NCBI GenBank assembly: GCA_029820295.1
Contig: JALGVA010000034.1
Location: 1 to 38,097, forward strand
Length of the DNA: 38,097 nucleotides
Source: Candidatus Zipacnadia bacterium
Lineage (GTDB): Bacteria; Armatimonadota; Zipacnadia; Zipacnadales; UBA5352
Direction: 5' to 3'
The notes beneath the pieces are model-generated. The model was given only the letters and a program-made list of their open reading frames with translations. It did not search any database and was not told where the DNA came from. How positions within the stretch are numbered: the stretch's first letter is position 1; the number at the start of each line of letters is the position of its first letter. Made by a program: the position numbers and the translations under genes. Of this stretch, positions 25,168-25,795 are shown in pieces.

Positions 25168-25191
25168 CTTACACTATTATAAGAGTGCAAG
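25168..25191. promoter_or_regulatory. AT-rich 24-bp palindrome over the sat promoter region
   Basis: The sequence from 25168 to 25191 is a dyad with 10 of 12 base pairs matched. Its outer parts are CTTxCACT and AGTGxAAG around the centre TTATAA. On the minus strand it contains TATAAT (25181 to 25176), a likely -10 element for sat. It stands out in a GC-rich genome. It is probably an operator; I cannot name the regulator. Confidence 0.6.
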
Positions 25192-25279
25192 TCAAGTGAG
25201 CTTCGGGACTCGTGAGCAGGCTGTGAGGCAGGGCAGGCCGGATCGACGGATGCTTCCTCGAACACACATTCGTGTCGAC

Positions 25280-25308
25280 TTGACTCGCCCCGCGATGCCG
25301 GATATGAT
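25280..25308 (+). promoter_or_regulatory. Strong sigma-70-type promoter
   Basis: TTGACT (25280-25285) and TATGAT (25303-25308) are separated by exactly 17 bp, each one base from the consensus. Transcription should start near 25315, about 30 bp before the ribosome site of the 46-residue membrane protein gene. Confidence 0.8.
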
Positions 25309-25309
25309 A

Positions 25310-25323
25310 CGAACTGTAGTTCG
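25310..25323. promoter_or_regulatory. LexA-type SOS box (GAAC-N4-GTTC)
   Basis: CGAACTGTAGTTCG is a 14-bp palindrome (12 of 14 bases symmetric) that fits the GAAC-N4-GTTC operator of Gram-positive-type LexA. It begins one base after the -10 element and covers the predicted transcription start, the place where a repressor would block the promoter. lexA itself is not in the window, so LexA binding is inference. Confidence 0.65.
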
Positions 25324-25343
25324 AATAGAGAGGAGTCAGGCGC

Positions 25344-25484
25344 ATGGAGCATCTGCTGACGCACATAACCGGCCTCGATCTTGCACTCGGGCTGGTGCTG
25401 CTGGTCGTCTACCTGTGGCAGGAGCCCGACGAGCGTGCCACCGACAGACCGCAAAGGGGGCTGGACACGAGCGCCGCAGACTGA
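25344..25484 (+). CDS. Small single-pass membrane protein, candidate SOS-induced
   Basis: This gene of 46 codons plus stop encodes a protein with a short N-terminus, one hydrophobic segment at about residues 8-25 (including GLVLLVVYLW) and a polar, charged tail ending in D-T-S-A-A-D. GAGAGGAG lies 8 bp before the ATG, and a near-consensus promoter overlapping a LexA-type box lies upstream. I recognise no family. By analogy, small SOS-induced membrane proteins such as SidA or TisB stop division or depolarise the membrane, but there is no sequence match to claim. It diverges from sat and is followed after 83 bp by a lipoprotein gene on the same strand. Confidence 0.75.
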   Translation: MEHLLTHITGLDLALGLVLLVVYLWQEPDERATDRPQRGLDTSAAD

Positions 25485-25567
25485 TAGGATAGCATGGAGG
25501 AATCGCGGGCGCGACCGGCGAACCCGCATGTACTGCTCGAACCCACCGGGACAAGGGGAGAAGCGTC

Positions 25568-25795
25568 TTGAAGGCTGTCTACCTGGCTGTCGCGCTCATG
25601 ATGCTGTTCATCATCGTGCTCTCGGCGTGTGAGGGCGGCAGTCTGCCCTTCCGGGGGGACGGCAACGGAGATGGCAATGGCACGTCACCCCCCGACGGCA
25701 ACGGTGACGGCGGCAACGGTGGCACTACGCCACCTCAGCCGCCCCCCATCGATGGCGGGGATGGCCTCACGCCGCCCGATCCGCCCGTGATCTAG
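25568..25795 (+). CDS. Small lipoprotein with Gly/Asn/Asp- and Pro-rich tail
   Basis: This 75-residue protein has a signal peptide with a hydrophobic core and the lipobox L-S-A-C, so Cys21 should carry the lipid anchor. The mature part is low-complexity: G-D-G-N repeats, then Pro-rich. The start is TTG at 25568, with GGGGAG 8 bp upstream; other codons give no better site. A 25-codon frame from the ATG at 25494 ends in a TGA that overlaps this TTG, which may couple translation, but its ribosome site is weak and I do not call it. The gene probably shares the transcript of the upstream small membrane protein and ends at the terminator at 25822-25850. Confidence 0.7.
   Translation: MKAVYLAVALMMLFIIVLSACEGGSLPFRGDGNGDGNGTSPPDGNGDGGNGGTTPPQPPPIDGGDGLTPPDPPVI

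What the first reader, a model, noticed from the sequence alone, without database searches (positions are those of the whole stretch)
25280..25484. Candidate SOS-induced small membrane protein with its LexA-controlled promoter
TTGACT-N17-TATGAT is followed at once by the palindrome CGAACTGTAGTTCG, a GAAC-N4-GTTC box covering the predicted transcription start. Downstream, after a good ribosome site, is a 46-residue protein with one membrane helix that automated gene callers may miss. Known SOS regulons in distant phyla contain small membrane proteins that stop cell division (SidA, YneA) or depolarise the membrane (TisB). This protein looks like none of them in sequence, so it could be a new, independent case.
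Basis: partly seen in the sequence, partly recalled or inferred. Interest (0 to 1): 0.76.

Follow-up and report, generated by a model that had tools for sequence, protein, structure and literature searches.

The report
SOS-controlled tiny membrane protein gene
In an uncultured group of bacteria, a gene for a very small membrane protein sits under the DNA-damage switch (LexA) in eight related species, so it is probably a previously unrecognised damage-response protein, most likely one that pauses cell division.

Summary
TTGACT-N17-TATGAT, the palindrome CGAACTGTAGTTCG and a 46-codon ORF with one hydrophobic helix are at the stated coordinates. The host is an Armatimonadota bacterium (Zipacnadia/WS1 lineage). 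First, lexA carries CGAAC-N4-GTTTG over its own -35 in 10/10 genomes of the family, and the same box precedes a DUF6504 gene (9 genomes), a Hel308-like helicase (7) and dinB (3). Second, the small gene is found in 7 family genomes by sequence, plus a 24-codon positional version in an eighth, always with the box on or just after the -10. The ninth genome with the locus has lost gene and box together while keeping the downstream lipoprotein gene and its promoter. The reading frame is under protein-level selection. The C-terminal 'GLDT..AD' motif is mostly an overlapping promoter for the next gene, so the functional part is about 27 residues. No Pfam or NCBIfam family matches. LexA control is about 95% likely. 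The mechanism is inferred: a SidA-like division inhibitor acting through its transmembrane helix (about 50%). A TisB/DinQ-like depolarising peptide is less likely, because no antisense promoter and no long or unusually structured leader was found.

The parts
25280..25308 (+). sigma-70-type promoter TTGACT-N17-TATGAT of the small gene
   Evidence: same architecture in the relatives
25310..25323 (.). LexA box CGAACTGTAGTTCG, directly 3' of the -10, over the predicted transcription start
   Evidence: the same motif is in the lexA promoter of 10/10 family genomes
25259..25272 (.). second LexA-like site CGAACACACATTCG (1 mismatch), 51 bp upstream of the main box
   Evidence: same spacing in G001 (51), 53 in G004; not seen as a near-perfect site in the other genomes
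25330..25335 (+). ribosome-binding site GAGGAG
   Evidence: G/A-rich site present before all relatives' start codons
25344..25484 (+). 46-aa single-helix membrane protein; conserved core is residues 1-27
25462..25490 (+). promoter TGGACA-N17-TAGGAT (TG before the -10) of the next gene, overlapping the last codons and stop of the small ORF
   Evidence: still present in G008, which has no small ORF
25568..25795 (+). small lipoprotein-like gene (75 aa, signal peptide with LSAC lipobox, proline/glycine-rich); neighbour, not thought to be part of the SOS unit

Best explanation
The ORF is a real gene for a minimal (about 27-residue core) inner-membrane protein. LexA represses it by sitting on the transcription start; after DNA damage LexA cleaves itself and the protein is made in a burst from a short leader. 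Most likely the helix inserts in the membrane and binds a late division protein (FtsW/FtsI type), holding up septation until repair is done, as SidA does in Caulobacter. Shown by sequence: conserved gene under protein-level selection, conserved LexA box, gene and box kept and lost together, a single LexA per genome with self-cleavage residues. Inferred: repression and induction themselves, membrane insertion, division target. LexA control alone is about 0.95 likely; the figure below is for the whole statement including division arrest.
For: (1) One LexA in each of 10 family genomes, above the NCBIfam equivalog cut-off in the host, with the Ala-Gly cleavage site in all 10 and the Ser and Lys of the catalytic pair wherever the sequence is complete. 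(2) CGAAC-N4-GTTTG overlaps the -35 of lexA in 10/10; perfect boxes precede DUF6504 (9 genomes), the helicase (7) and dinB (3). (3) Seven genomes carry the small gene by profile (E 4e-24 to 2e-19); all have a box just before it, perfect in six and 1 mismatch in G003. (4) An eighth (G006) has TTGACA-N17-TATACT-CGAACAGTTGTTCG, then a 24-codon ORF MDGIHVLACALMVVLYVCRDAFIG, then the same lipoprotein gene, although the upstream neighbour differs. (5) G008 kept lipoprotein and promoter 2 but lost ORF and box, so the box serves the small ORF and not its neighbours. (6) In the core, pairwise substitutions in five close relatives fall 51/19/116 on codon positions 1/2/3, with no shuffle of 20,000 as extreme; pN/pS is 0.24 for the closest pair. 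(7) One helix, residues 3-25, tail disordered. (8) Among all distinct boxes in the loci fetched, a small hydrophobic ORF with a ribosome site follows only in this gene family and in one case in G017. (9) No SulA-like or LysM gene was seen among the conserved boxed genes, so this is the only checkpoint candidate found.
Against: No experiment in this lineage: induction, location and target are all untested. Confined to one family (7 of 41 order genomes by profile, plus G006), and missing from G008. The protein has no conserved positive charge and no domain beyond the helix. In YneA of B. subtilis the helix alone binds FtsW but does not block division (PMC13396833), so a bare helix need not inhibit. 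recA has no box within 1.5 kb. All relatives are metagenome assemblies.
Confidence: 0.5

Rival explanations
1. SOS-induced membrane-depolarising peptide like TisB or DinQ: the helix oligomerises, lowers membrane potential and ATP, and slows growth during repair.
For: Similar size (core about 27 aa, 24 aa in G006; DinQ is 27 aa) and LexA control; single hydrophobic helix.
Against: DinQ and TisB are type I toxins held back by an antisense RNA. Here the predicted leader is short, the mRNA start is not unusually structured (z +1.0), and no antisense sigma-70 promoter or Rfam family is found. Fixed residues G10, D12, L15, L20, Y23 in all seven relatives point to specific contacts.
Confidence: 0.15
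2. SOS-controlled membrane regulator of some other partner (protease, transporter, envelope enzyme), not the divisome.
For: Small single-helix proteins often modulate larger membrane proteins (general knowledge); nothing in the sequence names FtsW.
Against: Known LexA-controlled small membrane proteins in distant groups mostly act late in division (PMC13396833, PMC4211646); no other checkpoint candidate was found among the boxed genes.
Confidence: 0.25
3. The box controls the downstream lipoprotein or the divergent sat gene, and the small ORF is only a leader or chance ORF.
For: The lipoprotein gene follows after 83 nt and sat is divergent.
Against: The lipoprotein has its own promoter and G008 keeps it without box or ORF. 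The upstream neighbour in G006 is a Kelch-like gene, not sat, yet box and ORF persist. Codon-position bias shows selection on the protein.
Confidence: 0.04
4. GAAC-N4-GTTC here is a chance palindrome.
For: Genome-wide counts equal the reversed control.
Against: Conserved at the same promoter position in eight genomes; the composite pattern has no control hits in the order.
Confidence: 0.02

Closest known systems
SidA (Caulobacter crescentus), SOS-induced division inhibitor acting on FtsW/FtsN
   Same: LexA-controlled, tiny inner-membrane protein (29 aa, PMC4211646), essentially one helix
   Different: No sequence relation shown (no family match, and SidA's sequence was not aligned directly); different LexA box (C. 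crescentus GTTC-N7-GTTC, PMC9578287); target unknown here
YneA (Bacillus) / SosA (Staphylococcus) / ChiZ (Mycobacterium)
   Same: DNA-damage-induced single-pass proteins that stop late division; B. subtilis and S. aureus use the same box CGAAC-N4-GTTCG (PMC9578287)
   Different: YneA and ChiZ carry a LysM domain (PMC13396833), which is absent here
TisB and DinQ (E. coli), SOS-induced depolarising peptides
   Same: LexA control, single helix, under 50 aa (PMC3567139); dinQ too has two LexA operators over its promoter
   Different: They have regulated leaders and antisense RNAs; no sign of these here
Footprinted LexA regulon of this family: lexA, DUF6504, Hel308-like helicase, dinB
   Same: Same box; the small gene is a further member
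   Different: In the DUF6504 and helicase promoters the box lies between -35 and -10, in lexA over the -35; in the small gene just 3' of the -10

Membership tests
LexA (SOS) regulon | Operator motif identical to that of the host's own lexA promoter | tested here: met
   CGAAC-N4-GTTYG in lexA promoters 10/10 and at this gene
LexA (SOS) regulon | Operator placed so that it blocks the promoter and conserved in relatives | tested here: met
   Box on or directly after the -10 in 8 genomes
LexA (SOS) regulon | Self-cleaving LexA present | tested here: met
   Ala-Gly site in 10/10, Ser and Lys in all complete copies
LexA (SOS) regulon | Induction by DNA damage, loss of repression in a lexA mutant | not testable with these tools
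   needs RNA from cultured cells or a reporter
SidA-type SOS division inhibitors (works like) | Very small single-pass membrane protein | tested here: met
   24-51 aa, one hydrophobic stretch, helix 3-25 (pLDDT 89 in residues 11-20); membrane insertion itself is predicted only
SidA-type SOS division inhibitors (works like) | Blocks division, binds FtsW/FtsN, suppressors in ftsW/ftsI | not testable with these tools
   none
SidA-type SOS division inhibitors (works like) | Sequence homology to SidA | not tested
   SidA itself was not aligned; only Pfam/NCBIfam were searched, no match
YneA/ChiZ | Extracellular LysM domain | tested here: not met
   no Pfam match; about 20 disordered residues after the helix
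TisB/DinQ type I toxins | Antisense RNA and structured leader | tested here: inconclusive
   no antisense sigma-70 promoter, no Rfam hit, no unusual structure; an RNA from another promoter type would be missed
TisB/DinQ type I toxins | Membrane depolarisation on expression | not testable with these tools
   none

The most novel reading that the evidence does not exclude
A new, independently evolved family of LexA-controlled minimal membrane checkpoint proteins in an uncultured Armatimonadota lineage. A second, sequence-unrelated small membrane protein (65 aa, G017) carries the same promoter-box geometry in another family of the order, suggesting that such proteins arise and are replaced repeatedly under the same LexA-controlled promoter design.
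Probability: 0.4. Interest if true: 0.72.

Novelty: new member of a known kind. Interest (0 to 1): 0.6.

Why it matters
In the open-access library searched, no paper describes a LexA regulon in Armatimonadota. This gives a footprinted LexA box and core regulon for one family and a new small-protein family in it. If it stops division, it would be one more unrelated solution to the same checkpoint problem and a very small natural probe of FtsW/FtsI. It also shows how a conserved C-terminus can be a promoter in disguise, a caution for small-ORF conservation screens.

Tried and rejected
Homologues in plasmid records: none. Profile search in the order: only the family. Control of sat or the lipoprotein by the box: rejected by G006 and G008. 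A LexA box at recA: none within 1.5 kb in 9 recA loci from 8 genomes (searches are failed or partial script attempts at the same question); recA follows thpR and, where read, a cinA-like gene. G017 65-aa protein as a distant homologue: not supported (hhalign probability 1.7; no relative in the order). Fold search of a single helix was judged meaningless and not run.

Full report
What is there. By itself the palindrome is not remarkable: the genome has 8 perfect CGAAC-N4-GTTCG sites and 7 of the reversed control. The case rests on conservation.

Host. The window is contig C6 of a 5.6-Mb assembly. The closest named records with the gene are Candidatus Zipacnadia and candidate division WS1 metagenome assemblies; Zipacnadia is described within Armatimonadota in PMC10290634.

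Is the box the LexA box here? Each of ten family genomes has one LexA, with the self-cleavage Ala-Gly site and, in all complete copies, the Ser and Lys. In all ten the lexA promoter carries CGAAC-N4-GTTTG overlapping the -35. Boxes also precede a DUF6504 protein (nine genomes), a Hel308-like DEAD/DEAH helicase (seven) and DNA polymerase IV (three). recA lacks a box within 1.5 kb.

Is the small gene real and is the box tied to it? tblastn and a profile find it in seven family genomes and in no other genome of the order. All have a box before the ORF, perfect in six and with one mismatch in G003. In five genomes the spacing is exactly that of the window, once per genome with no control hit; with looser spacing G005 and G006 join. 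In G006 the promoter and box are followed by a 24-codon ORF with the same kind of helix and then the same lipoprotein gene, although the gene on the other side differs. G006's ORF is called an ortholog from position and an ungapped resemblance (Gly, Cys, Leu-Tyr), not from a significant score. In G008 the lipoprotein and its promoter remain, but ORF and box are both gone. The box therefore follows the small ORF, not its neighbours. Pairwise substitutions in the 27-codon core of five close relatives fall 51/19/116 on codon positions 1/2/3, and none of 20,000 shuffles was as extreme; pN/pS is 0.24 for the closest pair, 0.53 pooled with saturated synonymous sites.

A misleading motif. The C-terminal 'GLDT..AD-stop' looks conserved, but TGGACA-N17-TAGGAT, a promoter with TG before the -10, is written across those codons. 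G008 keeps that promoter without any ORF and G006's protein ends before it. The functional protein is thus probably residues 1-27: helix 3-25 in the model, with a low-confidence tail (overall pLDDT only 68 from seven sequences). Fixed residues in the seven aligned proteins are M1, G10, D12, L15, L20, Y23 and the last Asp, the last being part of the promoter overlap; in G006 the position of D12 is His.

How it probably works. LexA covers the start site; damage removes LexA; a short-leader mRNA makes the helix protein. Among known LexA-controlled small membrane proteins, SidA (29 aa, PMC4211646) is nearest in anatomy and acts on FtsW/FtsN; YneA, SosA and ChiZ also act late in division (PMC13396833), whereas TisB and DinQ are depolarising peptides under antisense RNA control (PMC3567139). 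The short, not unusually structured leader, the absence of a detectable antisense promoter and the fixed helix residues favour a protein-contact role. No other checkpoint candidate appears among the conserved boxed genes. I put division arrest at about 0.5, another membrane partner at 0.25 and depolarisation at 0.15. None of this was tested.

Beyond the family. Across the loci fetched, scanning every box for a following small hydrophobic ORF with a ribosome site returned only this family, the G006 version and one ORF in G017. The G017 protein (65 aa) has the same promoter-box geometry, no detectable homology and no relatives in the order. It may be an independent second case, but one genome is thin evidence.

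Limits. All relatives are metagenome assemblies; the LexA box is inferred by footprinting, not binding; the literature check covers only open-licence papers; SidA, YneA and TisB sequences were not aligned directly.

Noticed in passing
L154:1470-1745 (G017): A 65-aa single-helix protein follows TTGACA-N18-TACACT-G-CGAACTTGTGTTCG, the same geometry as in the window, with no detectable homology to the window protein.
   Followed up: partly
window 25168-25200: Upstream of the divergent sat gene (ATP sulfurylase), an inverted repeat TTACACT-ATTATAAG-AGTGCAA lies at its promoter; similar sequence is visible upstream of the small gene in G003, G004, G007 and G009. Possibly an operator of a sulfur regulator.
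   Followed up: no
window 25462-25490: Promoter of the lipoprotein gene is embedded in the last codons and stop of the small ORF and is conserved.
   Followed up: yes
L008, L071, L074, L080, L086, L089, L104, L107, L115; also L181, L182: The DUF6504 protein is preceded by a LexA box in nine family genomes and, in other families of the phylum, similar small ORFs follow boxes too: a likely core SOS gene of unknown function; no paper in the library mentions it.
   Followed up: partly
L005, L070, L081, L085, L097, L106, L110; L155: A Hel308-like helicase is LexA-boxed in seven family genomes and in G022 of another family.
   Followed up: partly
L043-L051: recA has no LexA box within 1.5 kb in 9 loci from 8 genomes; it follows thpR. 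G005 has two full recA genes, which may be contamination (8%).
   Followed up: partly
L190, L192 (G289): Two copies of a DNA adenine methylase-like gene in one genome each follow a promoter with a LexA box, possibly prophage genes under host LexA; named from the protein sequence by eye only.
   Followed up: no
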